Positions 6,952-58,863 of a stretch of 64,000 nt of DNA are shown here, one piece after another. How positions within the stretch are numbered: the first letter of the stretch is position 1; every line of letters starts with the position of its first letter. Location: positions 186,001 to 250,000 of the forward strand of contig JASBNA010000062.1 of assembly GCA_038087015.1 (NCBI GenBank), read 5' to 3'. Under the pieces are notes generated by a model, which did no database searches, was not told the origin of the DNA, and worked only from the letters and a program-made list of their open reading frames with translations. The DNA is from Cerrena zonata. Lineage: Eukaryota; Basidiomycota; Agaricomycetes; Polyporales; Cerrenaceae. The translations under genes were made by a program, and so were the position numbers.

Positions 6952-7071
6952 TAAGGACTGTGCTACCGTTCCTTCCATCAACGGAAGAGGTCAGCGTGCC
7001 AGTATTTATGATCACTGTTGCTCTAAAATAGAACTTTATTTCAGTCCATCAGCACACCAGGAGTTCAATCC

Positions 7072-27836: not shown

Positions 27837-28062
27837 TTAAATTAAAATGTCGAGGTAAGTGACATTATCTGTAGTGATGTGGTTATCTGGTAGCTGAACC
27901 ATAGCATGAGAACGGTGTCTAATTCGAGAGCATGCAGAGTACAGCTGTCCATGCTCGAAAACAGGCTGCATGAGATCCACACCGACACTTTCATAAGAAA
28001 GTCCTTGGCAGCTATTAGAGGTGGTTGCATAAACCGGAGCTAATGGGAACTGGCGGCGTAGG
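27837..28062 (-). pseudogene. Helitron helicase, C-terminal piece (split by KDZ insertion)
   Basis: The minus strand reads RRQFPLAPVYATTSNSCQGL and then YSACSRIRHRSHAMVQLP. This is the C-terminal motif block of the Pif1-like helicase (QG in the motif V region, S-R in motif VI) of Rep-Hel Helitron proteins. Its missing upstream part lies 15.8 kb away at 43856-44648, also on the minus strand. Joining at the duplicated GGCGTAGG (CCTACGCC on the coding strand) gives HTLL followed directly by RRQFPL in frame. The stop lies at 27837-27839. Confidence 0.82.
28055..28062. repeat. 8-bp target-site duplication, left copy (GGCGTAGG)
   Basis: Identical to 43856-43863. The flanks outside the two copies belong to one Helitron helicase reading frame, so this is a true duplication and not a chance match. 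KDZ elements are known to make 8-bp duplications. Confidence 0.92.
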
Positions 28063-29061
28063 CACACCTTTCAGTCAATACGGACCTAGTATATAGTATG
28101 AGATAGGGCGCCGACGTTACCTGTAGGTAGTATGAGATCGTCGAGCTCGAAAATACCGTGTGTGCTTACTGTGAGACTGAGATGGACTATCTCGATGTGA
28201 GGGAGAATAACTTAATGTGAGTACTAGATGGCCTATCTGACAATGGGGTGGAGAAGGGGGTGAGGTATATGAAGTATTGAGATTGTGTATCTGAAGCTGA
28301 AAGCCAGAGGGCGCAGCAAATATTGAGATGGGCAATCCCAAATGATCAGCGAGCGGCGCGCAAATCTCAGGGTGGTGAATCTCTGGTGGAGAGCGAGAAG
28401 ATCTGTGATAGCCGGATAGTCAGTTTGGAGCTGGAAGACAGGAGGACGGGGTGGTAGCCTGAGATAAACTGTCTGGGCGCGAGGACGATGCTGGCAGACT
28501 GTTGGAGATGGGCAATCTTGAGATAGGGTGGGCGGGATGGACAATCTGGAAGGGTGCAGGACCTCGGATGGAGTATCTCAGGCGGGAGAAGAAAAGGGGG
28601 GGAATAGTTGGTTTTTTTCAACTTTGTCAGACGAGTTAGTGAGTATTCAGAAGGGCTGTGGCGACATTCGGGAGTAGACAAAGTCTATAAAAAAGTTGAA
28701 ATGATCGCAAAGGGTCTTTAATGCGAGTCTGACTAGATATAAACACAAAACGACCCCTTTTGGTTTTGGGGGGTCGAGGAGAGGATGGGCTATAATACGC
28801 TAGAGAGCATATTACGGTATGATAGAAGTACCGCTGAGGTGTGTTGGACATACATAAGTCGGGAATGGGCACCATATCTCATTCCAACTCATTTGAGAGA
28901 CTGTACATGTCTCGCGCGCTGAGATTGAAAGTCGGTTTAAATACTCTGAAACTGTGTCCTTAGGAGGTAGACGATATTTAAATTATATGAAACAGGTGAA
29001 AAAGTGGAATACCATCTTCATCGTACAGAAACGATTGCGCAAGGTACCACGCGCTGCAAAT
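28063..29061. repeat. Left terminal inverted repeat with subterminal motif array
   Basis: About 999 bases, inverted relative to 42942-43855. The outer 130 bases and the block 28410-29061 match closely. The intervening 28190-28410 differs in length and sequence from the right side. Throughout are copies of an imperfect palindromic word close to AGATGGNCNATCT, for example near 28191, 28228, 28325, 28505, 28535 and 28565. A conserved 79-codon frame inside both repeats is probably incidental. Confidence 0.88.
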
Positions 29062-29633
29062 ACGACATCATGAGAGTCAGTGAAAATGAACTATAAGATC
29101 ATAAGATGCATCTAAATAGAGATAAATCCCCGATAATTGCATATTGGGTAGACATAATTGAGAGTTTATCCGTTGGACTTGCGAGAAACAGCATGGACTA
29201 GAACAGCGCACGGTGTGAGGTGCTGCAAATGTTGCACACTCCGGGATTATGAAAACATCATCGACAATGTAAAGGATATATAGATATTGAGAGGATGATA
29301 GTCTGAGGTAGTCCACTATCACATTGAGTGCTTCTACAAACTCAACGACTCAGCGGACGGTATGGCGCACGAATGACATAAGGACTGAGAAGAGGTAGAG
29401 GCGTATGAAGTGTGCAGTTAAAAGTAGGTGTAGTGGGAAGCTAAGCCTTACATGTGTTACCAAATTTGTCGGGCTCAAAATTGTCTTAGGGTTCGATAGT
29501 TGCGCGCGCGCTATGCAGTATACAAAAGAGAAGGAACCATAGTCAATGATGTACAATTGGAGATACACGAGTTCTTAATCTGAATACACCGTCAAATGTA
29601 AAAAAAACAAAGAAAAAGAAAAGGCTCTGTTCT
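29062..29633. other. Internal non-coding stretch of the KDZ element
   Basis: Lies between the left repeat and the 3' end of the 212-aa gene. No gene is visible. Contains a GCGCGCGC run near 29504-29513. Confidence 0.5.
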
Positions 29634-30386
29634 CTATCCAAAGTTTGGTTGAGTGACGTCGCGCGGGAAGCCCTGGGCGACCATTACCTGCATTTCTTCC
29701 ATCATATGACGGGAAGATCGCAGTAGAGTCTTTGTTTCCTCTAAATGAGACACTGTGACCAGCTTTTGCGGGATGTATTGCTGTAAAGAGATATTAGCAA
29801 GCGGAGCGCGCGCAGAATGTGTACAAACTCACCGGAACTGCAGCTTCATCGCAATCCCACCAGGGAGGTCGGGAGATATTGGGAGTCTGCATTTGTGCAT
29901 GATATTTCCACCACTCATTCTCGCTCAGAAGCTCTGGGGCGATGTGACGGAAAATCCAAGGGTACAATGGAATCTGCCTTGATAAAGGTTCGATGGTGGA
30001 CCAATTTATGATAAAAGCATCTTCGGAGTGCTTTTCAAGCCATGGAAACTGCATAACAGAGAAGAAGGGACCGCCTTGGCAACCAGAGACCATCAGGTCA
30101 CCAATAGCGCGCTTCAAAATAGTCTGTGCGCAAAGAATGTTGTATGATGTTGTTCAACACAGACTTGTCTCAGGAGCGCACTTACGAACTCATAATACAA
30201 GCCAATTCTCCATCTTCTCCGGCGTTTGTCATTACCCACATCACCAGCGACCAATGATGATAGAGCACGCCCGATCCGATTGACACGATAGACGACTGCG
30301 GCGGCCATGTGATAGTCAAGACGACCAGTGAAGAGATTTTCTGGCTGGGGCACAGCGGTACTAGTAGAGGCAGCAGAAGAAGACAT
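29634..30386 (-). CDS. KDZ-element cargo gene, 212 aa, unknown function
   Basis: Exons 30386-30186, 30123-29833 and 29780-29634 (minus) give 212 aa with clean GT..AG introns of 62 and 52 nt, both in phase 0. The start MSSSAASTSTAV is preceded by a short leader. The protein has a basic patch (NDKRRRRWRIGLYYEF), an aromatic-rich middle (NEWWKYHAQM, RPPWWDCDEA) and a helical C-terminus with methionines (RSSRHMMEEMQVM). I recognise no domain. It lies 124 bases downstream of the transposase stop on the same strand. The intact frame next to a transposase suggests a function in the element, but that is inference. Confidence 0.7.
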
Positions 30387-30509
30387 TGTGTAGAGCGAGG
30401 GGGAAGAGTAAAGAGAGAGCAGGATGATCAAAACGCGCGAGAGGAGATCGAATAAAATCATATTCGTTGAATACAAATAAAGACAAACAGTAACGAGAAA
30501 CAGCGGATA

Positions 30510-33500
30510 TTACGCATGGTCCATTGTCTCAAGCGCCTTCTGCGCGAGGTGTGCGAAACGGCGCCAATTGTATGCCTGCCGCAAGGCGTAACACTCAGCA
30601 CCCACCGTTGTATCCTTGGACCTATCAAGCCACGTTTTCTCGGTGTGCTTAAAATAGTTCCGGGTCCATTGCATCTCGGATTTGAGCAGAATTTTCTCTT
30701 CTTTCCATCTATCACGTCGAGCCTTGGCGCGCAGCCAATTGACACGCAGCACTGGAGGTAGATGAGAGCACAGAATGTGGTAGAGAGTAACGAATACCTA
30801 CTTTCCTCCATAAATTCAGGTGTACTAGAGGATTGAGTGCTTGTCTGCCAAATCCATGAAAGTTCTGCCTGACTTTGCCCTCGCGCATTGGGGTCAACAA
30901 CGGCTGTACTTGCTGCAAGATCTTCTTTGCGCAATACTTTGTACTTGTCAAGGAGGGTACTACTCGCCCCGAGGGTAATCATGGCCTTACGACAAGTGGA
31001 ATACACCTTGGCAGCGTGATCAATTGTCATCCGGATGGCGTGCGCATCACCGTAACTCCTCAAGCGTTCAGAGTAGCCAGTGGTGGGTGCATTCTTCCGG
31101 ACGCGGGAGCGAAAAATAAAGGATCTATGAGCAATTGCAACGCGAAGCTCGTGCAATGCATCATTCGCTTGCCCAATGCGTAGCTCAAGTTCGCACTGCG
31201 CAATTCCTGCTAGCTGTCCTTGGTATCGTTGTTCACTGTATGAGGAAGGAAGGGGAAGGGGTATCGTCTCAGGAAAAATGGATTCAACAGGAGGAAGATC
31301 ACTGCGAGATAAAACAGTCTCAACTGGATCGTCCCTATCAGTGTCCTCGTCGAACCACGAATCATCAATGAGAGCTGATGGGGATTGTGTCAAACTACCA
31401 ATATAATCGACTGACTGAGTAATGAACGAGTCGATTTTTGACTGCAGTCGACGACGCTTCGACTGAAGAGCAAGTTGCCTCTCATAAGTTGATTGGGTAT
31501 CCTTTTGCGCACGTCGTTCAGAAGTTCGATTCTAGCGCATGGTTAACTTACGAGCTGGTTGACAATGGGAGATACTAACTGTTGCTCTTCCAGTTTTAGA
31601 CCAAGGGCAAGCCAAGCTGCGGTGCCATTGGAGAGTGTTGACTCGTCTTCTGTTTCTGCTAATCGGCGTTGAATTTCAATTTTACCTTGGGCTGCTCGAC
31701 AAGTCAAAGGTAAGATCTTTGCAGGACAATTGTGAGCTAAATGACTAACCCTTTTCCTCTGAGACGTCTAGTCTATCCATCACCTCCGGTGATTCATCTC
31801 TTTGGGATGGCATCAGTTGTTCCTCCTCGCCCCACTTCGCGACGCGCGCGGGGCCCACAAATTCCGAGAGCTTGGCGAAATACTCTTCGCTGTCTTCCCT
31901 TTGCAGAATGCATGCCTTCCGTTTCCGTATTAGAGTGGCAACTACATTCTTTGAGTACGACCACATGTTATCTGTAGGAGGGACATACCCATGCGCGTGA
32001 GTTTCTTCCAGTTGGAATCTCCAATATGGCAATCCAGATACTCCTGGCGGTGGAACCAGGACATTGCCCGAGCACTACTAGCAGTATAGTTCAGGATATG
32101 CCACAGTGTCTCGATAATCTCCCCATCGAGCATTCCCGCGCCTGGAATAAAAGTGGGTGCGTAGCGAGCGTAACATTCTTTCATATGGCCGTGAACATGG
32201 AACAATCCAATACCGCGCTTGATGTTGAGATTATCGTTGAGCTTGATGAGGTCTTTGACAGCATTTGTTCGTGTGAGGAAGTTTGTCCAGTATTGGCACA
32301 TGATATCGTAAAGCAGTAAGATCATCAGGATAAATGGTATATAATTGATTGCATTAATAAATGCGTAATCAATATAACGATGTCTGAGTTGATAAGATTA
32401 AGTATATGTAGTAGCTGAGAGGATGCAACTAACATACCCTTCGCCTTTGCGGAAGTTGACAACCACATGGGGATAGAAACAGCCATGTCGTCCACAAGCA
32501 ATCGCTCCGATTCCAGTAGCATCCAAATGTGCTCAAGCAGAGTTTTGCGATTTAATTGGATCATATTCATGACAAGTAGCAGCCTGAAACTTATAAGCGT
32601 GACACCAAATATAACTTTGCGTGACAAACCTGAGTGGGTGGCGCTGGAGCCTTGTCAATGTAGTTGTCACAGTCCTTTTTCCCCACCAGATAGCCATGAC
32701 CATCGCTGAGTGGTACGTCATCTTCAGGGTACTTCATTTTGAGATGTTCCTGTTTAAAGTTCCCATCAGCCAAGAGCGTGCGCATGAACCGCCACCTATG
32801 CGCACAGTCAGTTCAGTGGCGAGATTGATTTAAGTACTACATACTGATCATTCTCTCGCTGCCAGCCTTCCGGTAGGTTAACTGCAGGCTGTGGACAGGC
32901 CGGACAAAATAAGGCAAGTCCTCCAGGCGCAATCTCCGCTTCTGAACCAGCGCTCCTGGTATAATGTGTACCTGCACGCATTCGTTGTTGAAGGTTTCTC
33001 CATTCGCGCATGACTCTCATAAATTCGCGATAACGGTCCGGAACAGATTGAGGAAAGGCATTTGAGGTGAGTCGTTTAAGCTTTGCGTAGTATCGTTGCG
33101 CAGAGGCTTTAGTTTCCAGATTCTCCAAGTCAACATCCTCAAGAACTCGAAATGTGAAGACTGTTTCTGGACGATAATATGTAACAGGATAAAGCGCGAG
33201 ACGAATGAGCTGTGTACGAATAGAAGGAGCATCCTCACATGTGCAGGAATGGACTGGAAGATGGTGAACACCGGTAATGTCGACAATGGTCATCCACTGA
33301 TTACCATTGGCATCGAGACCCTTTGGAAACTTCATAGACGATGATTCAATACCTCCTGTTTCAAATTCGAAGTCATCATCATCGGAATCAGCTTCGTACA
33401 ACATTGCATCAACACTCGATGCGCTGTCATAGCTGGCGTCTGTATCGTCGAAGCGAGCATGCCCACCATCTGGATGTGAATGCGGTATTTGCGCTTCCTC

Positions 33501-34566
33501 GTGCGAAAAAGCGGCTGACTGGGATGTTGTGTGTGACTGAGCAGTCTGAGGTGATGATGCGCGCGAGGAGGAGGGTGATGCGCCCAATGGTGAAGATGGC
33601 GGAGGCGGAGTACCAAAGTCAAACTCTGGGTCGGCAGCAAAGTTGGAAAGATCAAAATGTCCAAATACATCCGTCTCTTCATCGTCCAACATGTCAATGA
33701 CTCGTTGCTGTGCTGGGCGCAAGTTCGTGGTGGAACTTGAGTCTGGCGCCTCAGTTGGTAAAGTCCTCATTGGAGCCAGGATTGGTGAGGTAGGGGCTGA
33801 TGATGCCCTAGAGGACGATATGCTCTGCGGTGGAGTAGAGGAAAGCCCTTCTCCCGTCTGTAACATCCATGGGCAAGGCATGCCGTAGTGTCCCAAGTAG
33901 AGCGTGAGTCCAGTCTTGCGCAGCGAGGAATCACAGAAGGTTTTTCCATCCCACCTCTGGACTCGATGAAACGGAGCACGCTCATGAGCTTCTCTGCAGC
34001 ACGATGTACAGAAAACGGGATCACCAAAGCAATCACGACATCGCCACAGCATCAATCCACCGCACACACTGCAAGCAACCGGTAATGGAGGTGACGCGCG
34101 TTCAATGATTTCGGCCAAGAACTCATCACGATACCCCAGCCAAACGTTCAACAGTGCAGTCGCTGGCTAAACTTATGCATTAGATAAGTGAGAAAAAGGA
34201 GAGAGTTGTAATGCGGACCTTTCGTGTGCGTTCCGGCATGACTTCATGCTCTATGACAACACCAGCAAAGGGATCGTCATCATGCTCGTGAACCGACGAT
34301 GTATTGGCAACTGGGGGAACAGGAAACAAATTTCCTGCTGGCTGACTGATTGGAATCCACCTTGTGGGTCTTCGATATGCAGCTTCTGCAGGGACATGCG
34401 TATACATTCGACCGACGGGCGCGGTGCTTCGCTTTGGCTTCCGGCGCACATCCTCAATGACAACTGCATTCGAAAGAGTAGTTGGTAAAGCAGCTACTCG
34501 AGACCGCTTTGTTGGTGATCCTGAAGACGGAAGAGGCGGAAGCTGACTTTTGCGTTTCTTAGCCAT
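30510..34566 (-). CDS. KDZ transposase with CxC2-type cysteine cluster, nine exons, one in-frame TGA
   Basis: Exons (minus): 34566-34219, 34166-32845, 32795-32630, 32583-32438, 32383-31989, 31941-31750, 31691-31552, 31501-30802 and 30751-30510. They total 3,651 nt, all junctions in phase. The start is CACCATGG. After a basic N-terminus (MAKKRKSQLPPLPSSGSPTK) comes the cysteine cluster VACSVCGGLMLWRCRDC, then FCTSCC and a His. An acidic, serine-rich linker follows. The RNase H-like catalytic core includes ATGIGAIACGRHGCF, LLLYDIMCQYW (likely catalytic Asp), ECYARYAPTFIPGAGMLDGE and IIETLW (likely catalytic Glu). The helical C-terminus holds GQANDALHELR and a final LRVNWLRAKARRDRW block, as usual in KDZ proteins. 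The TGA at 32535-32533, just before HLDATGIGA, is the only lesion and cannot be spliced out with the introns I see. The copy may therefore be inactive or the base may be an error. Confidence 0.92.
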
Positions 34567-35002
34567 GGTGCGCAAGAAAGTTACTTCATGCAGCGCGCAC
34601 GTTTATTAATGTCTCTCAGTCCTAAAATAACATCCGGTATAACCAATACACGCTTCAGATTCATGGGAAAGTGACTTTAAATAGGTTACATAAGGTGAGA
34701 CACCGTCTCCATACAGACATGCTTCCATGCGCGAGAAGGTAACTATTCCATGGAAAGTGGGTCACTGTGAAGTGGTCCTACATGCTTTGACTTCCTCAGT
34801 CCAATCCAACGACGATATACCTCCTGACTCATCCATGAGCAAGGCCTGACATTACTAAACTCCTGCAATGACCCTCGCATGTAAAATGCGTGGCAAACGC
34901 GCGCGCCATCTGCCTGTGCCACGCCGTGGCGAAATGCGGTCCCACTGAAGCCTACAATTGTACCTGGCGTGTTTCCAATCTGTATTTCGTAGATATGGAG
35001 AT
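34567..35002. promoter_or_regulatory. Divergent promoter region inside the KDZ element
   Basis: 436 bases separate the start of the minus-strand transposase from the start of the plus-strand 707-aa gene, so both promoters must lie here or overlap. It holds two GCGCGC words (about 34596 and 34896). No clear TATA box is assigned. Confidence 0.5.
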
Positions 35003-37327
35003 ATGACTTGGTCCGAGTTCATTAACGATGTAGTTGCTTCTGCTCAACGCTGGTTTGGTGCCCACATGGTCGTCCTTGCATATCGGCCAAGTATCAAACT
35101 GAAATCTCGATTCGCCCAGTCAATGTAAGCTAGTATGTTTATCCACCAGAGATTGAAGACTAACAGCTCTCAAAGCCATGAAACACGTCCTGTCAAGCTC
35201 ACAGAACGTAAGTGGATTGATTCCCATGAAGATGGTCAGTGGAGCTGGTTCGCGAAAGATTATCTTACATGGCCTTTGACGTTGGGAGAAGCAACTCCGA
35301 ATAAGCCTCTACTTATCATGTTTGACACCGAGGGCGAACCTCTGCTTCCATCCCTTACCACTTTTACAACAGCGGAGCAACATAGAGATGTGCTCCACAT
35401 GTTTCTTACCACTCATTATAGTAAGCCCGCTCTCATCTCAAATAGCCATTAGGGTTCACGCTGTTATGCTCAGAGTTGGCCACCTGCGACCCCGCCTCGG
35501 CTCCTCCTTACATTCACATGTCTGGAAATGGTCCACTATTACTAGAGTGCCAGTACCTACCTGATACGGATGAATCTACGGCTTATGATGTCTACCTTCG
35601 AAAGCCTGGCTCCCTCAGAGGCGCACAACGATATGCGTTCTTGAGCCACTTGTATGCGCGCCAGGAGCGTTACCTCAGTGGTGAGAGCATTCTCGTCTTC
35701 AGGTGGAAATCCATCAAAGGTCCAGGAAAGGTGGTGACGTGGGAGCCGGCTAAGTACAGTCCGCAGTGGATGCTTCAGTTTGCCATGAAACATGGGACGA
35801 TTCGTGCGCCTCTGGACCTGGGAGCTCCTCCTGTCACTCCCAATCCTACTGAGCCAGCCCGTGTGCCAGATGCTGGTCCCTCATCGTCTAGAAGCCGTAA
35901 CAAGCGCAAGGAAAAACGGCGAAAGCAGGTAACGAATGCTGAGGTTAGTGAGCGTGAGGATGATCCATTTCAGTCGGGGAGTGAGGACGAGACAGATGAC
36001 GACGACAGAGTGGAGGGGATGGTGGTGGATAGTGAGGGAGAGGATTTTACCTCTGCACTCGATGCTGTGTCGTCGGATGAGGGGGAGGAGTTAGCTCGAC
36101 AATCAGCCGCGCGCGCAACAAACTCGAAGGGGAAAAGCGCAATACGACCACCCCATTACACTCCGCTTTCCAGAATTGATGCTGCTGAACAACCACAGCG
36201 AATGCCACTTCCACGCTCTGCCACTCATGCGCAACAACAGGTTCGATTTGGAGATGAGAACAACTTGGCCGACGATGAGGAGGAGGACAAACTCGACTTT
36301 CTCTTCAACCTGCTGCCAGGACCTACCTCACCACAGGTATCGACCATTTCTGTGGAATCTCAACCACCAAGCTGGACAGAAAATCGCCTCGATCGCAAGA
36401 TGCAGTACGTGCGCGCCATTGCGCCTGACCCACACTTTCTCGCGCTCGTGGACTGGTATGAGCAGTCGGCTGTAGGTACCATTCTTAATAGAAATATCTT
36501 CGTTCTAATCTTTGCAATGCAGGCCTTGGTTGTACTTCCTGCCTCTCCATTTGAATGGGCAAGTTGGGGGAGCGATGCTGCGCACCTACCGGAAGATGTA
36601 CACTGCAGGCCCGGAGGTGCTGCTAAGGCTGTTGGTATCGTTAACTCATGGAGAAAGTCCTCAAACAAGCGTTTCAATGAGCTTCCTTCATTCGAGCTGC
36701 TTCTCTTAACGTCAGCACTGATTTATCGCGATGTCAAGGCTGCTGCGTTCCACGAACAAGATGACCCCAAGTTCCCATTGTATTTCAACCAGTCTGTCTT
36801 TACCAGGAAGCAATACGACGGTCTCAGAGCCTCATTCAAGTACATTGCAGAGGAGCTTCCCATCGAAGGTGAGCAGGCAGCTCCAGACGCGCCAGCAATC
36901 CTTTCAGCAGGCCTCGACTCAAGCCCTTAATCCGAAACGTGTACCAAAGCCACGAAAGAAGGTTACAGAGAAAGCCAAACATCTCAAGGACAGTCAGCCT
37001 GGTCCATCTCAACCGCCAGTATCGACACCTCATAACTCGGATACCGAAGATGCGCGGGGATTGAAACGGGTGCCTGAATCCCCTACAACACCGAGGAAAG
37101 GCAAGGGAAGAAAGAAGCAAAAGGAAGCGACACCAACTGCGGCGGTACGACGAGGAACACGAGAAAGGACAGCTCCAAAGAGCTTTGATGACGATGTGGA
37201 TACCCCACTAGCACCCGCTGCCCACAGAGGTCGAGGACGAGGTGCTACTTACACGCAGAGAGGTAAAAATCAGCCCAAAAGGGGGGGGGCAACGTTAGAT
37301 AATGCAAAAGACACGTTATTCCACTAG
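35003..37327 (+). CDS. KDZ-element cargo gene, 707 aa, acidic middle and basic tail
   Basis: Exons 35003-35124, 35167-35420, 35474-36471, 36523-36868 and 36924-37327. Phases agree throughout and sum to 708 codons. The last intron uses an AAG acceptor (CTCAAG). If it is not spliced, the frame ends at 36930. The N-terminal 230 residues are ordered (MTWSEFINDVVASAQRWFG, DGQWSWFAKDYLTWPL, GESILVFRWKSIKGPGKVV). The middle is acidic and serine-rich. A second ordered block (around FEWASWGSDAAHLPEDVHC and DDPKFPLYFNQSVFTRKQYD) precedes a very basic tail with KGKGRKKQK and RGRGRG, like an AT-hook or nuclear localisation segment. I recognise no family. A nuclear DNA- or chromatin-binding role is a guess from composition. 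It is divergently arranged with the transposase. Confidence 0.72.
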
Positions 37328-37401
37328 TAGATATACAAATACATGTGTTTTACACGATGCCAAGATAGGGAAATTGCGGATGCGCACAACAAGATATTAG
37401 C

Positions 37402-40400
37402 TTACGGGATTGAGCCCACTGATATGTCCATGTCCTCTCCACCGGACGTGTCTTCCTGTCCAGCTGAGCTACGTTCAGCGACATCAGATTCTTGCTCAGA
37501 GGTGACGTTTTCTTCACCTTCAGAAGTGGGTAACACAACAGGCGCGTCAACGGTTGGGGGGACATTTGTTGTGGTCTCTGCAATGACGGTGGACAGCGAG
37601 GGGAGAGGTTGATATTGAATTGTGATACGAGGATCCTCGTTGTCCGTGGAAGATATAGCAAGATGGGCAAGACCAGCAGTTGGGGGCGCAGAAGTACCAC
37701 GACGGAGAGTAGATAGAGCCACACGGGGGGGTGGAGGAGGTGAAAAGAAAACGGCCCGAGTCGGTGGAGAAGGGGAAGCCATGCGAACGTCAGAGGATGA
37801 GCTTGCTTCTTGCTCTTCTGGAATTGGCGAAAGTGCTGCTTGCTCGAGTTGCGCGCCGCTACTTTGAGGCAGCAACTCGGTAAGATGAACACCTTCAGCT
37901 CCTGAAAGCAACGCCTGAAGTTGGTGTTTGATTGCTTCTCGTAAGCGTGATTCCGATTTGTCGCGATACTCCTCGAACTGAGCCACCGTCCTCTGAAGCT
38001 CCGTGCGCAGCGCATCATGTTCCCGTGTGAGGACGTTCATTGCCTCAATGGCATCTGGTATGGTGGCCTTTGCATCATCAAACCACCTTCTCGTCTCGTG
38101 AACAAGGTCAACCATTTCTTTGCTCGATTGCTGAGCTGCCTGCTCTTCGAGCACCGCAAGTCGTGTGTTGAGCTCTGTCAAGCGGGTGCGCATCTGAGCA
38201 AGCATAACTTACTTAGTGAGAATACTACGAGGCCTCCAAATCGCAAACTTACCCCTGCGTTAATCTGCTCAGCACTTGCCCTTGTGAGGGTGGATCCCGG
38301 GCGCTCCAATTCACGCTGTATTGGTGACAAGAAATCAATGGGTGCAGTACCCCGACGTGGTGTTTGTGGGGAGCCCTCTACTAAACTTCCTCCGATTTCC
38401 TGCCCTGAAGTTGTTGATGCATCGTCGCTTGGCCCTCCAGTGAGCATCGAGCCCTCCGCGCGCTGCGCACCGTGATTAGCTTTTCGCGCATGATGAAGTA
38501 ACTAAATGTTTACCAAGGTAGATGATGGAGGAGGAGACATGTTTCTCACGTTACGTCTCATCCTGCTCACAACACCCTTCTTAGGTGCTTTGAAATGACT
38601 TGGGAGGAGTTCATCGACCTCCATCGCCTCATCCTCACTTAATTCCTGCGCTATAAATTGGTGAGTTCGTCATCCTTGCATTACACCCTGTATGGTACGC
38701 TACCTTCAATGCTCAGAGGCATGTCATAGACGGAGGCCTTGCTACTCGATGTCCTTCGTTCGATTACCACGGGAGGCTCTTGCGCGCCGCCCAGCTCTTC
38801 ATCCTGACGTTCTTCCTCGTCTTCCACAATCTGGTCGATTTCCTCCTCAGTGTGGTCCCCAGACGTACTTGGTGTCGCATCCTCAAGCTGTTCTGCTTCC
38901 TCGACGTCGTCATCTTCATCATGCGCGTCGCCCCCCTCCTCTACCTCCTCTAATTCAGACTCTATGTCATCGTTCGTTGGAGTTCCCTCAAGCAATCCCA
39001 GCTCTCGTTGTCTCTCCTCTACCCATTTCTCTCTCGTCAACCCATAGGATTGGGGAGGACCCTTGAGCTCTGGGTTCTGGCCTGAAGGGAGAAGCGGAGG
39101 TATGTGTGGGGACAAGGGAGGGAGCTGAAGCATGTCATAGGCACAGAAGTTTTCTTGGGACCATGCTCGTTTTAGCGCCTCGTAATACTTGTCGACATAT
39201 TCCAGGTCCTTTTCAGTCAGACCATCCATGATATCCCACTGCGCGCAATCAACTAGAGCAACTTCCTCTGGGTCCTTGCTCATCAGTAATCGGTGAGCAC
39301 GCTCGGCGTCCCGGTATGGGAGCCCAAACCAGATGAGCTGCCAGACATCCTCCTCAATCTCCTTCAGCGCGAGCTTGGCGCGTCTCTTCTCTTCGGCCAA
39401 ACCATCCTTGGTGAAGTTGTGGGTTTTCACGCCGTGAGGCATGCCCTGTCCAAAGTGAATGTGCTCGATTCGTCTGGGTTGGATTTCCATTGGAGATCCT
39501 TGCATCCACAACGAGATTTGCTTGCAGTGAAATATCTTCCCTAACACCACGCTGTATGGTACGTGAACGTGTGTCTTGCCATCGCCAATGAATGGGACGA
39601 AGCTACATGAGTGACCAGAATCAATGCAGCTCACACATCCGGGCGAGATTCGAAGGTAAATCATGCAAGGTCGATTGTTGATTGTGCAAGAATAGCATGA
39701 TATGAGCTGCGCGCCGAAATGTTCAGTCTGGCACACATCTGGATATTTACCCTACTTACTGCGATCTGAAGCTCGTTGATGTCGGGGTGGATCTCTACAT
39801 CGAGCCAGTATGTATCCGGCAATCTGCCCTTCTCTTCGATCCAGTACTCAGGCCTTGTTGCGCAGTGGACTTGTCGTACAAGTTCAGAGTCCTCGTCTGA
39901 GCCATCCAGTGTTAGGTCAATAACGCCATCGTCATCGTCGTCCTCGAATCGCTTACCAGCACTCGTTAGGGTAATTTGAGGGATCTCTGCGGCTCTCATG
40001 GGTTTCTTCCCCTTAGTTTGCGTGCGCGCGCGAATGCCAGGCGTTTGTTGCTTCATTGGGGCAGTTGGTGGTGGCTGTCTGGTAGCTCGTTTCTCCACAG
40101 TCTTCCTGCGTAGTGAGTATCTTTTTTCACCTGATCCCTCGACGGCTTTCTGTTCCATCTCCATCTCAACATCCTCACTAATTGCTTCCTGAAGCTCGGG
40201 TTCTTCATTTGTTGAGCCTTCGGTCGGTTGGCGTTCCATTCGGCTCGGAATAATGGGTAACTTGGGAGGGCATGCAGCGCCCTGAAATTGAAAGATTGTT
40301 TTCCCTTCAGAGAGAGTTTAGTACGACATGCGCGCCATCCTTCATCTGATACATACCACTCGCCAGCATTTCACGAAGTCTTGTTGCCGTAATTCGCCCA

Positions 40401-41035
40401 AAGTAGGGTGTACTATCCAGCTTCAGTCGCTCTCTTCCCTCCCTTGCTCGTACTGCGTTGAAGGTATCAACTAAGAGAAGTTAGCTATGTCTCACGTATT
40501 CCACTGCGTGCGCATACCAGTCATTCCCAGCCATCTTCGATGTGGCATATCAATCCTCCCTTCTTCATCGATACTCAGCTCCAGGTCGTCGTATATGATC
40601 GGACCATCAGGCTGATATATGTATGTGAAAACCTTTACCAAGTCGAATGGAATCCCATCTTGCTTGTACGCTGTTATGCGCTTCAGAAACTCGAATATAA
40701 GCACTGGGAGCTCCCCTAGATTGCTTGTCGGCTCTGAAATATGCCTTGTGTCCTCCTGCATTCAATAAACCAGTAATCTGTTAGTTTTTCAAATCTTTTG
40801 TAAGTCTATGCGCGCGACGCACCTGCCAGAGGTCATGTATTCCTGTTATCCATGCATCGTACTCCTCAAGCATGGCCCCTTGAGGAAATGAAAAGATTGC
40901 CTCTCTCAGAAAGGCACAGAAGTTCCATGAGATGATCTCGTTTCCTTCTGGTTTAACTCCGGCTGGGCATGCGCCTTGCGCTGTGATTAGCTCCTCTGGT
41001 ATATTTGCAGTTTGCGGCTCTGAGGTAACTTCCAT
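37402..41035 (-). CDS. KDZ-element cargo gene, 1,083 aa, Zn2Cys6-spaced cluster plus coiled coil
   Basis: Exons (minus): 41035-40823, 40755-40518, 40470-40357, 40304-39760, 39706-38704, 38650-38514, 38462-38253 and 38193-37402. They total 3,252 nt with all phases consistent. The frame is also open up to an ATG at 41134, so the start is uncertain by 33 codons. Near residue 374 the protein has C-x2-C-x6-C-x9-C-x2-C-x6-C (SCYSCTINNRPC, then GCVSCIDSGHSC). This is exactly the spacing of the fungal Zn2Cys6 (Gal4-type) DNA-binding cluster, although it lies mid-protein rather than at the N-terminus. A SUMO/UBX-like acidic stretch (DDDDDGVIDLTLDG) precedes it, and long acidic runs follow. Exon 8 begins with a heptad-like helix (RTRLTELNTRLAVLEEQ and onward for about 95 residues), probably a coiled coil. 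The tail is Ser/Pro/acidic. This is the largest cargo protein. A DNA-binding accessory role is inference. Confidence 0.75.
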
Positions 41036-41235
41036 GCTGTAAGTTTTCTGGGCCGATAAGAGATATAGGTATGATAATAAATTGAGCCTCTCTGAGACGT
41101 TTGAGTTTGACCCCACCACAAGACTGTCACGCATGGTGACAGTGTTATGACATTTGCTCACGCATTGACCACCCTAGTAGCCCACGCCTCAAATCTGAAC
41201 GCTCAATTCCCCTCTCATGCAACTCATTAGCACTT
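41036..41235. promoter_or_regulatory. Second divergent promoter region of the KDZ element
   Basis: At most 200 bases lie between the 1,083-aa gene (minus) and the 281-aa gene (plus). If the upstream ATG at 41134 is used, only about 100 bases remain, so the two genes must share regulatory DNA. Confidence 0.4.
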
Positions 41236-42190
41236 ATGGCACCCAAGAAAGCAAAGCCAACAAGAGCTCCTCCAGTCGAAGAAGATGACCCAAATGTAAT
41301 CGCTGCTGTGCGTGACTTACAGTCTCGTGCTTCCATACTAGGCATGGGAACCGCTTATCTGAGGGACCACTCCCAGCGCAAAGAAATGACTCGTCGAGTT
41401 CCGGTCATTGCACCGAGCGTAGACTCCTCAATTCAGCCAGGTGTGTAACATATCTGCTAGAGACAACTTAATTTGGTCACTAATAGTTCTACCCGCCAGA
41501 AGCTGGCCCATCGAAGCCAGTGCGCTCTCCTCGAGTCAGTTCAGATCGTCCTACCAAGGTTTGTCTGATCTCCCCCTTGATTTAACACCATTCATAATGT
41601 TTCGTAAGCAATTAAAACCGGGGGAAGCCCTCATCACACCGTCAGGAGATCAGAACCCTAACTTGATGGGTGTTCTTGCTCTCCCTTACAAGCAACATCG
41701 CCCTCGTAGTGGTCCACCTGCGAGCTCTGTTCGTGCAGGCACGCTCACTGCTGCCACACAACCACCTCCATCTGGAGGTGAAAGAGCCCCAGCTTCCGCT
41801 CCTGTCCCACCCCGACATCCATCTAGCCCACAAGCGTCATCCTCGCGCATGGACCATACTCCTCATCACGCTGACAATGTACCGCCTGCGGCTGCTGCTC
41901 CAGTGAGCAGATTGCCTCAGAACATTCATCAAATGACGTCTCCCCAATCTCAAGCAAGTTCTCACTCCTTCGCTGCAGCATCAACGCAGCTACAACAGCC
42001 GCCTGCGCTACTCCCACCTTTCCAAGTCCAGCGCACTCTCTCTGCTCCCCAATCTCATTCATTTCCTGTATCACCCGGGAGCTCCCCTCCACACCCTGCT
42101 GGGCCTGCCCACCTTCAAGAGTGGGTGAATTGGACCCTCCGTGCGGCTGCTTTATGTCAGGCTATTGCAGAGTTGGAGAAGAAATTATGA
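41236..42190 (+). CDS. KDZ-element cargo gene, 281 aa, Pro/Ser/Gln-rich
   Basis: Exons 41236-41440, 41500-41558 and 41609-42190 sum to 282 codons. The introns are 59 and 50 nt; the second ends TAAG. An unspliced reading across the second intron is also open, so the middle of the protein is less certain. The N-terminus is basic (MAPKKAKPTRAPP), then EDDPNVIAAVRDLQSRASIL. A compact segment QLKPGEALITPSGDQNPNLM comes before a long low-complexity Pro/Ser/Ala/Gln region. It ends with a short helix (EWVNWTLRAAALCQAIAELE). No family is recognised. Confidence 0.65.
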
Positions 42191-42941
42191 TGTATCTTTC
42201 GCGCAACAACGTATCTCGATCCCATGTTTGTACGATATAGCATTTCTTGAGCGCAATGATGATATTCCGTCTTTCTGAAGTATTTCTCTGTCCAGAATTG
42301 CATGCTGAGATGAACAATGCCTTCGACGTGGCGACAATCGCTGTCTTGCGCGTCCTGAGTTCTCTCACTAACCACATCTCATAGATGCAATTTATATAGT
42401 GTAACGCACTCACCTAGGGTTTCGCACAACGTAAAATAGCTCCTGTTGAGTCTTTCTGGTTTTCAATTCTGTACCAATCTGCGCTTACTGGCTGTGCGCA
42501 TCATATTCTTTGCTCAACAACATCTGCCAAAAAACATATTGTATACATCATCATCTGACGAAAGCGCTGTATACAAAGCTATACAGACTTTTTTCACTCC
42601 TTTTAAACTCATCTTTTGATTCCATCATTTACAGCGCCCTTGCTGGGGCGCGACGTTTCTCATGACATGAAGTGATATGATCACTCTTTTATCCGGTTAA
42701 TGCAATTGTTTCATCGCTCTCGTTATCTTGGCAGCCTACTGAGACCGTTTTGTTATGTTTCTGAGTACACATTAACCATTGTTCGTTTGCCGCGCTTGGT
42801 ACGGTGCGCGATGGTTCACGCAAGACCAATCGGTAAGTGAGTGGAAAGATTCGCTGCATATACCGCTACCCTAAATAGCCCCTTCAAATACATGTATCTC
42901 ATGCTGTTATACATCTTTTCCATGCACCACCATTGTTTTTG
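42191..42941. other. Internal non-coding stretch of the KDZ element
   Basis: Between the 281-aa gene and the right repeat. No supported gene. AT-rich, with scattered TGCGCA-type words. Confidence 0.5.
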
Positions 42942-43855
42942 ATTTGCAGCGCGCAGAATCGTGCGCGATCGTTTCTGTACGATGGGGGTGGTATTCCACT
43001 TTTCCACCTATTTCATATAATTTAAATATCGTCTACCTCCTAAGAACACAGTTTCATAGTATTTAAACCGACTTTCAATCTCAGCGCGCGAGACATGTAC
43101 AGTCTCTCAAATGAGTTGGAATGAGATATGGTGCCCATTCCCGACTTATGTATGTCCAACACACCTCAGCGGTACTTCTATCATACCGTAATATGCTCTC
43201 TAGCGTATTATAGCCCATCCTCTCCTCGACCCCCCAAAACCAAAAGGGGTCGTTTTGTGTTTATATCTAGTCAGACTCGCATTAAAGACCCTTTGCGATC
43301 ATTTCAACTTTTTTATAGACTTTGTCTACTCCCGAATGTCGCCACAGCCCTTCTGAATACTCACTAACTCGTCTGACAAAGTTGAAAAAAACCAACTATT
43401 CCCCCCCTTTTCTTCTCCCGCCTGAGATACTCCATCCGAGGTCCTGCACCCTTCCAGATTGTCCATCCCGCCCACCCTATCTCAAGATTGCCCATCTCCA
43501 ACAGTCTGCCAGCATCGTCCTCGCGCCCAGACAGTTTATCTCAGGCTACCACCCCGCCCTTCTGTCTTTCAGCTCCAGATTGACTATCCAGCCATCCCCT
43601 TTTGCACTCTTACCATTTGAGATTGCCAACCTGAAGTACCACCCACCCAGGTAGTTCCAGATCGACCATCTCCTCAACGCAACCACACTCTCAGATAGCC
43701 TATCTCTAACAGAACCTCACACCTTCAGATAGTCCATCTCAGTCTCACAGTACGCACACTCGGTATTTTCGAGCTCGACGATCTCATACTACCTACAGGT
43801 AACGTCGGCGCCCTATCTCATACTATATATTAGCTCCGTATTGACTGAAGGGGTT
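42942..43855. repeat. Right terminal inverted repeat with subterminal motif array
   Basis: About 914 bases, inverted partner of 28063-29061. The shared 79-codon frame is identical between the two. The variable block at about 43590-43740 holds a different set of the AGATNGNCNATCT-like words (near 43473, 43490, 43578, 43659, 43693, 43727), so the arrays expand and contract independently. Confidence 0.88.
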
Positions 43856-43863
43856 GGCGTAGG
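43856..43863. repeat. 8-bp target-site duplication, right copy (GGCGTAGG)
   Basis: Matches 28055-28062 exactly. On the coding (minus) strand it is CCTACGCC within HTLLR of the Helitron helicase. Confidence 0.92.
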
Positions 43864-44648
43864 AGGGTATGACCAGATTGGAGGGTTCCCGTGAAAGAAA
43901 TGCGAGGTATGAGTATATCTTCATCTGCTATCCCTGAGTTGTTGTCAATTAAACGCACAGTTATCAGACGATCAACCATGCTGACGACGACTGCTCGTGC
44001 ATTCTTAACTAGTCCTCGATCAAGGGAAAAGTTGCGAAGTAATCGGTATACACCGTTGGTCTTCATAATTAATGTCAGCGGTGGGAAACCAGGTATTGTT
44101 CGGCGTACAGCGTAGTCGAGCATGGACTCAGGAGACTCAACGTTAGCATCGTCGACCTCTTTGATGCTATCGGCAGCGAGGTAAGTACGCTGGGAACCGT
44201 GCACCCTTCGAATGTCCCCAACATTGTACTCATCAATTTGTCTATTAGTTGGCGCAAGAATTGCACGGTCTACAGACAGGTGAGGATAGAGGAGGACGTG
44301 GGGAAGTACGAAATCAATGAGAGTTTCTGCAGAGACCGTAGATGCAAGCATCTCAAGTGAAACGGTAGGACTGGCGCCATCACCAATTTCGTCGATGACT
44401 GAACTGAACTCAGCATCTTCGGCGTTGCGAATAGGTCTTTCCAAGCGAAGGATGGTGAGCAGAGGCTACAAAGGCGACTATTTGATGGAAGCATCCACAA
44501 TCTGTTGTTTCGTACAACCCCGTATGACAGGGCATGTCTGCCGGAAGTCGCCAGCCAGCACTACAACCATATGACCAAAAGGTGATGTTGAACCTGACAC
44601 CCTGCGACACACCACTTCAACACATTGTAAAACAGCACGATTGGCCAT
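43856..44648 (-). pseudogene. Helitron helicase, middle piece (split by KDZ insertion)
   Basis: The minus strand reads MANRAVLQCVEVV, PFGHMVVVLAGDFRQTCPVI (GDFRQ helicase motif III region of Pif1-like enzymes), then VDRAILAPTNRQIDEYN (LAPTN motif). It then reads PLTLIMKTNGVYRLLRN and DILIPRISF, ending HTLLR at the KDZ insertion. Two in-frame TAG codons sit near 44480 (SIK*SPL*PLL), so the Helitron was already dead or is now dead. The ATPase Walker A region and the Rep domain are absent upstream of about 44.65 kb. The C-terminal end continues at 28062-27837. Confidence 0.85.
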
Positions 44649-52793: not shown

Positions 52794-55700
52794 CTATTCT
52801 ACCACATCCAGATTGTCAGGATCATCAAAAACGTAGTCATCAAGCACTTTATCCCATGTTTCTACCTCTTCTGCTTGTGTCTCTGCATTACCCCTTTCAT
52901 TATCCTCTAATTCTGATCCACCACCTTCGCTGTGAAGCTCTAGTTCCATCGCTGACGAGGGATCTCGGTCACGGAAGATAAGGTCTTTCCGAATTGAGCA
53001 CTTGAGTACTTGAAGTGCTTCAACGGTGTCCCCTTTAAAGCGAGAACGCCATTTGCTGATAGTGATACCCCCTTGGGAGAATGCACGCTCGCTCGAGACG
53101 GAAGATGCCATGATAGCAAGGTAGTCACGAGCTAGGGATGACCACACCGGATACTGAGGACTATGTAGCTATAAGATAGAAAGTTAGAATGTAGTATTTC
53201 AGAAGGAATGGGATGCAACCGTTTCGAATAAACCTACTTACCCCCCACCACTGTATGATGGATATACCATCGCCAAGGTAATCTGAATCGTTACTGTGGA
53301 GATACTTGTGAAATTCGGCGAGCCACGGCTTCTTTGGATCAACATTGGGATTTTCATGTGATTCCGTCTCGATCTCTTCCTCCGAGTCGCTAGAAAGATC
53401 GCGCAGAAGTGCTGACATCTTAGTAGAGGTTTGGGAAGACTTGCATGGTGGCATTGAAGACTGTCCGAACATCTGAATATGTCGAGCCTTGAACTAAATA
53501 GAAATGGGTATTAGATCTGGAGCGTTGATGAATACGAGTACGACATCTTCCATTGATGTAAGAGCCTCCGTTTCAAGCGTTGATGACCAGTATTTCTTAA
53601 AGTAGGCACCTTTCTGACATGGATTCAGGACTAATTTAAGTCGTTTGTGTGAGCAATACATTTGTGAGCTACATAGGAGTGTCACACGTACATATTGAAA
53701 CCACATAAGCATCGGTATTACCAGTTTTGTCATAGTATTCGGAAATCTTGTGACATGCAACTTTGAGAGCACGTGAAAAGGGTTCATATTGTTTCTTCTC
53801 TGCGCGGACGGACCATGCCTTGTGAAGTCCCTCTAAAACTAAAAAAAAACATACAGACACGGTTCATTCATTTCCGAAGAAAACATCTGCTGATGTGAAT
53901 CGACATGTGAAAGAAGCTGTAAAAACGACCCGACACGCTCCCACTCGTCAAAAGTTAGCTTGAGATTATCGATCTTTCGTCGTTCTTCAGCGTTGCTTGC
54001 GCACAAAGCCATCTTGCAGACGAAAGTGTCAACAAACTAAATGATAAATATTATATCAATATACTCTTGTGCATCTAAGCAAAGCACTTGCCTTCTTCGA
54101 CGGCTCGCTGCGGTGAAGCATAGCATAAGTTGACGACCGCCGTATTTTCATGTCAAGTATGAGCTGCTTTACTACCACTACATTGGAGCGTTGTTGGATT
54201 TCACGGAATAGCTCTTTGCGCTGTGCTGAAGAACGTTCCTGTGATGATGAAATTCGGTGATTACTCATTATGATTGACATTCGAATTAAGCTACTAACAT
54301 ACTTTAACTGCGATCGCGCGTACAAGCCCAATTTCATCTCGCTAAGGTCCATTTGTTCCTGCGATATCATTTTCTGGTGCTTCAGGGTCATACTATGGGG
54401 TGTTGCCGCTCGTAATACTTTTCGATAATCCGTCCATCCCTGGGTCCCGAGCACTTAGTTTGCCCCCAAACCGCACATTTGAATGCGATTATGTTCTGTC
54501 TATATGACCCAATTTTTTCTGAATTTAAATGTGGAGCTGTTGAGTTTGTGGAGAACCTTCAAGGAGAAATGATGCCTGACCACCGCTCGTAATACTTTAG
54601 TCACGCGTTACCTTGGCAGACAGTTCTCTCTTAGCGGAGTTTGAAATATCACGCTTTTGTCACTCATTGAAGGCCAAAATACCCTCCGTATGCTTCCACA
54701 TCCTCCTTTCTTTATCCAGAGCTATGTTATATGAAAGATACAAGCTGGAAAAGCTTAATGACAGCAAATAGAATTATTTCATTCAGCAGATCGATGGGAT
54801 CTGAGCACTCTTTCCCTTTTTGGCAGACCCACTTTTGATATAAATTTGGAATTGTGTTCTAACTGCTGATCCATTTGACACCAAAACCGAGAAACATATG
54901 GACAGCAATGGCATGAACCTGTCACAAATTTTTGAGTTCATTTGGATGAGTATGAAAGGGAGAAAGGTCTGAATTACGTTTGGAGGTCTATTACGAGCGG
55001 TGACACCCCATAGTAATGAGGTGATTTACCATATGTACTTATCAATATTTGGGTCGCAAGATTGATGACATGTCCTAAACAACTATTTGAAGAGAAGTTT
55101 TATTTAGAAAACAATCTTGAGATTGAAACAAGATTACTCACTTACTGCGATCTTTGACAGGGTCAAAAGAGCACTGATGACAGTTCTCAACATGCTTGGC
55201 GAACTCTTCGAGCATCATCCCGTTATTGCTTGCGTTGTCACATGTAACCTTGGAGATCTGGATTATTATTGGTTAGTTTCAGTTAGCGAGATGTGATATT
55301 AAAGATGGTACCTTATGTGCAATACCGAGTCGATCGACAACTCGATATAAGGCCTGTCCCAGGCGGACACCATTGTGGGCATTATTGAGCTTCGTAAAGC
55401 CTAATAATGCACTTTCGAGATGCCATGAATTATCACTTTTCACCTAAATCCAGTGTCCAGTTACCGCAAGATAACCATCAGTATTACTCGCCTGCCAGGC
55501 GTCGACAGCCAAGCTGACTGTAGAGGTAACCACACCACTTTTAAGTTTCTCGCGAAGATCACACATACGTTTCTTGAACATATTCATGGCATCCGCACGG
55601 CATACCTTGCGAGAAGGAATACTAACTCCATTCGTAGCGGCTGCAGCAACCTGGATCATTTCTTGAAACTTGGGATGCTCCAATGCTCCCAGGGGCTGAA

Positions 55701-56765: not shown

Positions 56766-57503
56766 ACTACAATGTGAGATGTGTTGCAAGAGAACGAAAA
56801 CACATACGAGAATTTGTGCTTACTGGACGAAGGGGTGCATCTGGTGACCCAGAGCATTTCTCATTCCAGCAGGGTCTCATCGAGAAGATAACAAGAGATC
56901 TGTTGACCAAAGACATGCTACCTCTACGGAATTCAATTCAAAGTACCGGGAGTACAACCGGGGGTGATCAGAGTTGCCTTCGGACACTTAGCAACTTGAA
57001 GAAGGATGTCAAGTAGCACAAACCGTGGAAATAGTGCAGTATTAATAGAGGTTCACCTCAATGATCTGCTGATACCTCCACGGAGCATGGAGAAAGGGCC
57101 AATCGCAGCAAGGAAACCTGTCCTAAGGCTAGGATAACTCGGATTGTGGAGCTCAGTTCTCACCCTACTAGAAGCATGGTTTGGGGGTTAACAAAAGTTA
57201 TATTGACCGCGGAACCGACCAAACATTAAGCCACTTGCTCAGGCTGTGATTGGTATTTGATAACCCAGCATCGACTCTAACTCTGTTGAAAATCCGTCGA
57301 CACGTGGTCTGTGAATATCACTAGCACCCACTATTGCTTGAACATGTCCTCGATCGTGTTCACAATTATGGCCACACAGCACATGTTCAAGGCCACGGCC
57401 TCAACGGCCTCCTCAGGCTATATATTTGGCCTGGCTCGGCTTGGTGTCAATACGGCCTGGCTTGGCTGGCTCAACGGCTTTGAGCCGGGCCCGCACATCA
57501 TTA

Positions 57504-58687: not shown

Positions 58688-58860
58688 CAAATTGTCAAAC
58701 TCTATGCGTTCTACAGTTTCCGCAAATAATTTAAATCAGCGGTGCAAGTATATGGCAGAGATATACTACTACATAAACTGTACAGATTTATAGCAGGTTC
58801 GGTGTAAAATTGAGTGTGCCAGAGGGGAAAGGGTAGGATTTTGACACTAGAGTTTGAAGC
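58688..58860. other. 173-bp palindrome spacer
   Basis: Unpaired centre between the arms. Its edges again hold GTCAAACTC and GAGTTTGA words, so the fold continues imperfectly for some 15-20 bases. No gene. Confidence 0.85.
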
Positions 58861-58863
58861 GTC

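What the first reader, a model, noticed from the sequence alone, without database searches (positions are those of the whole stretch)
28063..43855. A complete five-gene KDZ transposon with four unrecognised cargo genes
Exact boundaries, 8-bp duplication, long inverted repeats and five phase-consistent gene models can all be read from the sequence. KDZ elements are known from fungi mainly by their transposase and by association with TET/JBP genes (established). None of the four cargo proteins here looks like TET/JBP, and I recognise none of them. They stay open although the surrounding DNA is decayed, which suggests they matter to the element. This is the best candidate for an undescribed multi-component transposition system.
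Basis: partly seen in the sequence, partly recalled or inferred. Interest (0 to 1): 0.93.

Follow-up and report, generated by a model that had tools for sequence, protein, structure and literature searches.

The report
Broken copy of TET-carrying fungal transposon
In the wood-rotting fungus Cerrena zonata, this 15.8-kb stretch is a damaged copy of a jumping DNA element whose relatives in the same genome carry, in one fixed order, a transposase gene, a predicted TET-type DNA-oxidising enzyme gene and up to four more genes that likely help the element move and escape silencing.

Summary
The element is real: a KDZ transposon at 28063-43856 with CA..TG ends and long inverted repeats. The target duplication is 7 bp, not 8, as in 5 of 5 elements with both ends. 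It is not complete. Two relatives in the same genome show that this copy has lost 1,897 bp, covering most of a TET/JBP gene and the 5' part of cargo gene G3; that is why no TET/JBP was seen. The transposase also has an in-frame stop. The cargo is a genuine module: 16 elements share the order G2-transposase-TET-G3-G4 on the same strands, and 2 of 2 examined loci that first showed only transposase and TET carry diverged G3 and G4. Against a diverged full-length relative, dN/dS is 0.07-0.28 for the five window genes. G4 has a six-cysteine array with Zn2Cys6 spacing, and the inverted repeats hold 10 of the window's 11 copies of a 12-bp motif. Best reading: a broken TET+ Kyakuja-type element whose accessory proteins likely assist transposition and anti-silencing (inferred). 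TET-carrying Kyakuja elements are known; the long repeats, six-gene set and Cys6 protein look like a new variant.

The parts
28063..43856 (.). KDZ element, 15,794 bp, 5'-CACACCTTTCAG..CTGAAGGGGTTG-3'
28056..28062 (.). left target-site duplication GCGTAGG (7 bp)
   Evidence: 7 bp confirmed on C37, C111, C1, C4
43857..43863 (.). right target-site duplication GCGTAGG (7 bp)
28067..29114 (+). left inverted repeat in two matching blocks (28067-28199 and 28407-29114); the stretch between them is not alignable
42889..43852 (-). right inverted repeat in two matching blocks (42889-43596 and 43720-43852)
28181..28547 (+). subterminal repeats GAKRGNCWATCT, left: 28181, 28227, 28507, 28536
   Evidence: 11 matches in the window, 10 in the inverted repeats, 0.41 expected; motif drawn from this copy
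43456..43738 (-). subterminal repeats GAKRGNCWATCT, right: 43456, 43485, 43577, 43693 (overlapping a + strand match at 43694), 43727
29634..30386 (-). G2, 212 aa, 3 exons, no Pfam match
   Evidence: P0001 identical
30510..34566 (-). transposase gene: CxC2 zinc cluster and KDZ catalytic domain, multi-exon
32533..32535 (-). in-frame TGA in the KDZ region; sense codon in C53 and C37
34743..34985 (-). remnant of a TET/JBP gene: last 80 aa, including the distal metal-ligand His region; HxD motif and N-terminus lost
   Evidence: intact region in C53/C37:
34981..34986 (.). deletion junction: one TGTATT kept; C53 has TGTATT at both ends of the 1,897-bp segment that is absent here
35003..37327 (+). G3, 5'-truncated (704 aa annotated as P0007); relatives have about 200 further N-terminal residues, HMG-like by eye only
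37402..41035 (-). G4, about 1,052 aa in my model (one long gene, or two); C-terminal part coiled-coil-like by eye
39605..39697 (-). G4 six-cysteine array C-x2-C-x6-C-x9-C-x2-C-x6-C
41236..42190 (+). G5, 302 aa, Pro/Ser-rich, divergent from G4
   Evidence: positional counterparts in C4 and C1:

Best explanation
This is a damaged copy of a TET/JBP-carrying KDZ transposon of the Kyakuja type: a 1,897-bp deletion has removed most of the TET gene and the start of cargo gene G3, the transposase gene has an in-frame stop, and the four cargo proteins likely work beside the transposase and the TET enzyme in transposition and escape from silencing. Shown: ends, duplication, gene order in relatives, deletion, stop, and constraint on the genes against a diverged relative. 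Inferred: the KDZ transposase would cut at the CA..TG ends and insert with a 7-bp stagger. TET would oxidise methylated cytosines on element DNA, in a genome where the two closest copies differ mostly by C/T transitions, more than half of them at CpG. G4, with its Zn2Cys6-spaced cysteine array, would bind the 12-bp repeats in the inverted repeats and so bring TET, the transposase or both to the element; G3 would act as a DNA-bending or chromatin partner, and G2, which sits next to the transposase, as a transposase partner. The window copy itself probably cannot move without help from an intact copy elsewhere. The 1,897-bp loss has a 6-bp direct repeat at its edges, which fits microhomology-mediated deletion.
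For: KDZ and CxC2 domains. TET/JBP in the segment missing here: PF12851 41.7 bits (C37) and 35.4 bits (C53), cut-off 34.9; PDB matches CcTet 7vpn and 8jkk, E about 4e-9. The segment is shared by C53 and C37 (73.5% over 2,048 columns) at the same site, with TGTATT at both edges in C53 and once in the window. No C62 hit in the genome-wide PF12851 search. Same order and strands G2- K- TET- G3+ G4- in 16 of 16 elements that show all five (15 clusters). Two loci that had shown only K and TET carry G3 and G4 by profile, one also G2. dN/dS window vs C37: transposase 0.07, G2 0.08, G3 0.17, G4 0.17, G5 0.28; TET C53 vs C37 0.06-0.14. Six cysteines invariant in 5 of 5 aligned G4 proteins and present with the same spacing class in C53, C41 and C115. 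Repeat motif: 10 of 11 window matches in the inverted repeats, 0.41 expected; in the outer 700 bp of each end versus body: C37 9 vs 0, C111 12 vs 0, C4 5 vs 0, C1 1 vs 0. Of 191 differences between the window copy and C53, 146 are transitions of C/T or G/A and 82 of these lie at CpG.
Against: No step of the mechanism is tested. No Pfam family matches G2, G3, G4 or G5 above its cut-off, G4 does not match the Zn2Cys6 family at E<=1, and the HMG idea for G3 is not supported: best Pfam E 0.069 to a WDHD1 HMG box in 1 of 9 sequences, and PDB Abf2 at E 4.2 behind unrelated chains. The repeat motif was drawn from this copy, and C1 has only one. Window vs C53 dN/dS is 0.39-0.85 with wide intervals (G5 not computable), so recent constraint on these two copies is weak. 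dS against C37 is 0.55-1.46, near saturation, and the filter on local identity lowers the ratios. G4 has 4 of 21 clusters without KDZ or TET (C18, C38, C51, C83). 39 of 84 KDZ clusters show no cargo. Kojima 2025 describes two Laccaria Kyakuja families as having no inverted repeats, whereas these are long.
Confidence: 0.6

Rival explanations
1. The accessory proteins are purely transposition machinery (end-binding, synapsis, target choice), and TET is the only anti-silencing part.
For: G2 is adjacent to the transposase and shows constraint as strong as the transposase's (0.08 vs 0.07). Subterminal repeats read in one main orientation at both ends, as expected of transposase or accessory end-binding sites. 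KDZ clusters without visible TET also occur, so TET is not needed by every KDZ family.
Against: The module was found together with TET at all 16 complete elements, and the two examined K+TET loci also carry it; I have no element with the accessory genes and a clearly TET-less ancestry.
Confidence: 0.3
2. The cargo genes are passengers: former host genes carried along, with a function for the fungus or none.
For: No recognised domain; 4 of 21 G4 clusters have no KDZ or TET hit; similarity searches found relatives only in C. zonata.
Against: Fixed order and strand across 16 elements and about ten lineages (grouped by eye), constraint against C37, diverged copies at 2 of 2 examined further loci. 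C51 is cut by its contig start and C18 also has G2 and a transposase stretch, which lessens the four exceptions.
Confidence: 0.08
3. The deletion and the stop are assembly or sequencing errors, and the window copy is in truth intact.
For: One assembly only; no reads available to me. The same contig holds a near-perfect 10-kb inverted repeat at 53548-64000, which can be an assembly product.
Against: The deletion has a clean 6-bp repeat junction and the stop is a C-to-T change at a CpG, both ordinary natural changes. The annotated protein P0007 begins at the same truncated start, but it rests on the same assembly.
Confidence: 0.05

Closest known systems
TET+ Kyakuja DNA transposons of Agaricomycetes (Kojima 2025, PMC12730594; abstract, sections 4 and 18, part 1 of section 24 and passages read)
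   Same: KDZ transposase with a TET/JBP gene beside it, 7-bp target duplications, CA..TG ends, Polyporales among the hosts; the TET is nearest to CcTet, which that paper calls close to the AG type of Kyakuja.
   Different: The two Laccaria families described there have no inverted repeats, while here the repeats are about 1 kb. The text I read does not mention G2, G4 or G5 type genes in Kyakuja. The window copy has lost the TET.
KDZ elements of Iyer et al. 2014 (PNAS; not held; abstract recalled)
   Same: TET/JBP linked to KDZ transposases; as I recall, several elements also encode further proteins, including a divergent HMG domain, which G3 may be.
   Different: I could not read the paper, so whether G2, G4 or G5 were seen there is open.
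VANDAL/VANC anti-silencing of Arabidopsis (Hosaka et al. 2017, PMC5735166; abstract and section list read)
   Same: Proposed likeness in working: an element-encoded protein that targets repeats in the element's non-coding DNA and causes methylation loss.
   Different: Different transposon superfamily; no sequence relation tested. VANC effect is shown by experiment, this one is only inferred, and here an enzyme that can oxidise 5mC is encoded too.
IS3EU TET+ elements of rust fungi (PMC12730594, section 24)
   Same: Fixed order of transposase, TET and a further gene.
   Different: Further gene there is an alpha-kinase; 6-bp duplications; another superfamily.

Membership tests
KDZ transposons | KDZ transposase domain PF18758 | tested here: met
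   98.3 bits, cut-off 26.6
[quoted passage not shown]
   PF18803 CxC2, 83.4 bits, cut-off 27
Kyakuja lineage | 7-bp target duplication | tested here: met
   5 of 5 elements with both ends
Kyakuja lineage | 5'-CA..TG-3' termini | tested here: met
   5 of 5
Kyakuja lineage | no inverted repeats (stated for two Laccaria families, not as a definition) | tested here: not met
   inverted repeats of about 1 kb; so I call it Kyakuja-type, not a settled member
Kyakuja lineage | transposase clusters with Kyakuja in a tree | not tested
   no named reference sequences fetched
TET+ transposon | TET/JBP gene inside the element | tested here: met
   met in relatives C53, C37; in the window only an 80-aa remnant
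Zn2Cys6 (GAL4-type) proteins, for G4 | C-x2-C-x6-C-x5..12-C-x2-C-x6..8-C (spacing recalled) | tested here: met
   W, C53, C37, C18, C1, C4, C41, C115; no such pattern in the window outside the element
Zn2Cys6 (GAL4-type) proteins, for G4 | match to the Pfam family | tested here: not met
   no family at E<=1; hence 'Zn2Cys6-like' only
HMG domain, for G3 N-terminus | sequence match to HMG models or structures | tested here: inconclusive
VANC-like anti-silencing | element protein binds element repeats and lowers methylation | not testable with these tools
   only repeats and a DNA-binding-like array seen

The most novel reading that the evidence does not exclude
TET+ Kyakuja elements of this fungus carry a self-targeted demethylation machine: the Zn2Cys6-like protein G4 recognises short repeats in the element's own inverted repeats and delivers the element's TET enzyme there, with G2, G3 and G5 as fixed partners. 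This would be a fungal, enzyme-armed counterpart of the plant VANC anti-silencing system, kept as one six-gene cassette across deeply diverged elements.
Probability: 0.25. Interest if true: 0.8.

Novelty: new variant of a known kind. Interest (0 to 1): 0.5.

Why it matters
It turns 'four unknown cargo genes' into a testable module: a transposase, a TET enzyme and up to four accessory genes kept together in order across elements whose proteins are only about 25-45% identical. Why basidiomycete transposons carry TET genes, and how such an enzyme would find its own element, is open (PMC12730594 says the function is not experimentally validated and suspects untargeted action). A DNA-binding-like partner plus repeats in the ends makes targeting directly testable. 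It also warns that a TET-free KDZ copy may be a deletion derivative.

Tried and rejected
Rejected: an 8-bp duplication (fits the window only; 7 bp in the others). Rejected: that the 1.9-kb segment in C53 is a later insertion; C37, about 25% diverged, has the same segment at the same place. Rejected: a cargo set unrelated to TET. Not supported: HMG in G3. Led nowhere: relatives in other species; three protein searches returned only C. zonata proteins (2, 2 and 3), but that tool needs shared 5-residue words and scored only 7,992 candidates, so this is no evidence of absence. Papers: the listings showed no description of the G2/G4/G5 set; Iyer 2014 could not be read. The first dN/dS script stopped with an error after four genes and was replaced; part printed blank and was redone.

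Rows dropped: one search used one typed row per gene and locus, not every exon match: KDZ 86 of 141 (count), TET 53 of 53, G4 23 of 47, G3 24 of 54, G2 22 of 43, G5 5 of 12; clusters joined rows less than 9 kb apart. Two G4 matches found later at C34 and C135, both beside KDZ and TET, are not in those counts. The dN/dS left out columns under 35% local identity and stop codons.
Full report
What it is. The window is contig C62:186001-250000 of a 55.5-Mb fungal assembly. Proteins identical or nearly identical to my models carry C. zonata locus tags, on contigs of the same length as those searched (e.g. C53 327,619; C37 458,247; C4 2,183,932). The element runs from 28063 to 43856 (15,794 bp). Its ends read CACACCTTTCAG and, from the other side, CAACCCCTTCAG. 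Taking the ends as CA..TG gives a 7-bp duplication here and in the four other elements whose two ends I could read: C37 (18,354 bp), C111 (6,092 bp), C1 (17,131 bp), C4 (17,015 bp). The inverted repeats match in two blocks, 138 and 708 bp, at 93-94%.

Genes. A Viterbi gene finder of my own, with codon usage from this window and simple splice rules, gave G2 (212 aa), the transposase, G3, G4 (about 1,052 aa) and G5 (302 aa). G2 equals annotated protein P0001; G3 is annotated as P0007 with 704 aa; the annotation of G4 in the C53 and C37 copies is a 402-aa protein covering only its first part, so G4 may be one gene or two. The transposase has CxC2 and KDZ domains. No Pfam family matches the cargo above its cut-off (G5 was scanned from residue 69 on, G4 in pieces).

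Why there seemed to be no TET/JBP. C53 (about 98.5% identical, but with a 0.7-kb insert in the transposase and running off its contig end) and C37 (71-79% identical over most of its length) both hold about 1.9-2.0 kb, 73.5% alike, exactly where the window copy jumps. In C53 the segment is bounded by TGTATT on both sides; the window keeps one TGTATT. Its minus strand encodes a TET/JBP oxygenase core: PF12851 at 41.7 and 35.4 bits over a cut-off of 34.9, PDB matches to CcTet, with the HRD motif aligned to the same motif of CcTet. Its plus strand encodes the 5' exons of G3. TET and G3 are thus head to head, and one deletion removed the start of both together with the DNA between them. The last 80 codons of TET remain at 34743-34985. 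The genome-wide PF12851 search gave 53 matches, 47 over the cut-off, none of them at C62.

A second lesion. In the conserved KDZ frame the window has TGA at 32533-32535 where C53 and C37 have a sense codon; it is a C-to-T change at CpG. My gene finder avoids it only with an intron that leaves the conserved frame. So the copy is probably not autonomous. C53 is damaged in another way.

Is the cargo part of the element? I tabulated KDZ, TET, G4, G3, G2 and G5 matches by position. 15 clusters, 16 elements, show G2, KDZ, TET, G3 and G4, all in the order and strands 2- K- T- 3+ 4-. Many are recent copies of one another; by eye there are about ten lineages. The window is the one locus with G2, KDZ, G3, G4, G5 and no TET. 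G2 has 21 clusters, 20 with KDZ; G3 23, all with KDZ or TET; G4 21, 17 with KDZ or TET; TET 52, 44 with KDZ. Against a general rule, 39 of 84 KDZ clusters showed nothing else, 21 showed only KDZ and TET, and G5 was found by similarity only in the window, C53 and C37, with fragments in C80 and C26. Two of the 21 KDZ+TET clusters were opened. C41 has G2 (E 1.3e-4 and 6e-4), the G3 N-terminus (5e-10), further G3 exons and the G4 Cys6 region (3.7e-6) in the same order. C115, read on one side only, has G3 (5.8e-11, 3.1e-9) and G4 (4.2e-6). These E-values are for sets of 133-194 frames. The same profiles on the window's flanks gave at best 0.017, for two mirror-image frames in the palindrome. G5 has counterparts by position and strand in C4 and C1, with a similar last stretch (judged by eye).

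Selection. Window against C37 (Nei-Gojobori): transposase 0.069 (0.05-0.09), G2 0.079 (0.05-0.13), G3 0.165 (0.12-0.22), G4 0.167 (0.13-0.21), G5 0.277 (0.19-0.37); TET, C53 against C37, 0.139 (core) and 0.059 (N-terminal piece). dS is high (0.55-1.6), so these are rough. Window against C53 gives 0.39-0.85 with wide intervals (G5 not computable), as expected of two copies that no longer need to work.

Hints of working. G4 has C-x2-C-x6-C-x9-C-x2-C-x6..8-C, all six cysteines invariant in the five aligned proteins and present in C53, C41 and C115. This is the spacing of fungal Zn2Cys6 clusters (recalled), without a Pfam match. The inverted repeats carry GAKRGNCWATCT: 11 in the window, 10 of them in the repeats, against 0.41 expected. 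The motif was drawn from this copy, so C4 (5 in the outer 700 bp of both ends, 0 in the body), C37 (9 and 0), C111 (12 and 0) and C1 (1 and 0) are the better test, though the ends of C37 and C111 are related to these. Of 191 differences between the window copy and C53, 82 are transitions at CpG, 65 of them with the changed base in C53. That fits deamination of methylated cytosine, which a TET would counter; it is a hint, not proof.

Reading. This is most likely a broken TET+ Kyakuja-type KDZ element. Kojima 2025 (PMC12730594) describes TET+ Kyakuja from Polyporales and other orders, 7-bp duplications and CA..TG ends, but no inverted repeats in its two Laccaria families, and says the TET function is not tested. 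Iyer 2014 reported further proteins in KDZ elements, including a divergent HMG domain (recalled; not held). Long repeats, the fixed six-gene set and the Cys6 protein are what looks new here; I found no description of them. How the accessory proteins work is inferred: I favour end binding by G4 serving TET, the transposase or both.

Noticed in passing
window 53548-64000: Near-perfect inverted repeat: arms of 4,797 nt (100%) with 216 nt between them, plus 321 nt further out, reaching the window's end. A natural palindrome or an assembly product.
   Followed up: no
L025 (G000:C111:25301-31392): A 6.1-kb relative with the same ends and a 7-bp duplication that is almost only inverted repeat: at least 2.5 kb per arm at 99.9%, with internal repeats and 12 copies of the end motif; a likely non-autonomous fold-back type.
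   Followed up: partly
window 28063-43856 versus L021/L022 (C37), L026/L027 (C1), L037/L038 (C4): The two ends differ (CACACC.. and CAACCC..). In the window the CACACC end lies next to G2; in C37, C1 and C4 the CAACCC end does. The inside is flipped relative to the ends, perhaps by recombination between the long inverted repeats.
   Followed up: partly
L019 (C53) 6790-7520: An AT-rich insert of about 0.7 kb with long inverted repeats (CACTGGA..TCCAGTG) in the transposase of the C53 copy; looks like a MITE.
   Followed up: no
L035/L036 (C80) and G000:C26:493105-500102: G5-like fragments with stop codons and no KDZ hit nearby; C80 also has an element end. Probably relics.
   Followed up: no
window 43830-44465, minus strand: An open frame at the right border that resembles, by eye, the end of a Pif1/Helitron helicase; Pfam found nothing. 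The element may sit in an old Helitron.
   Followed up: no
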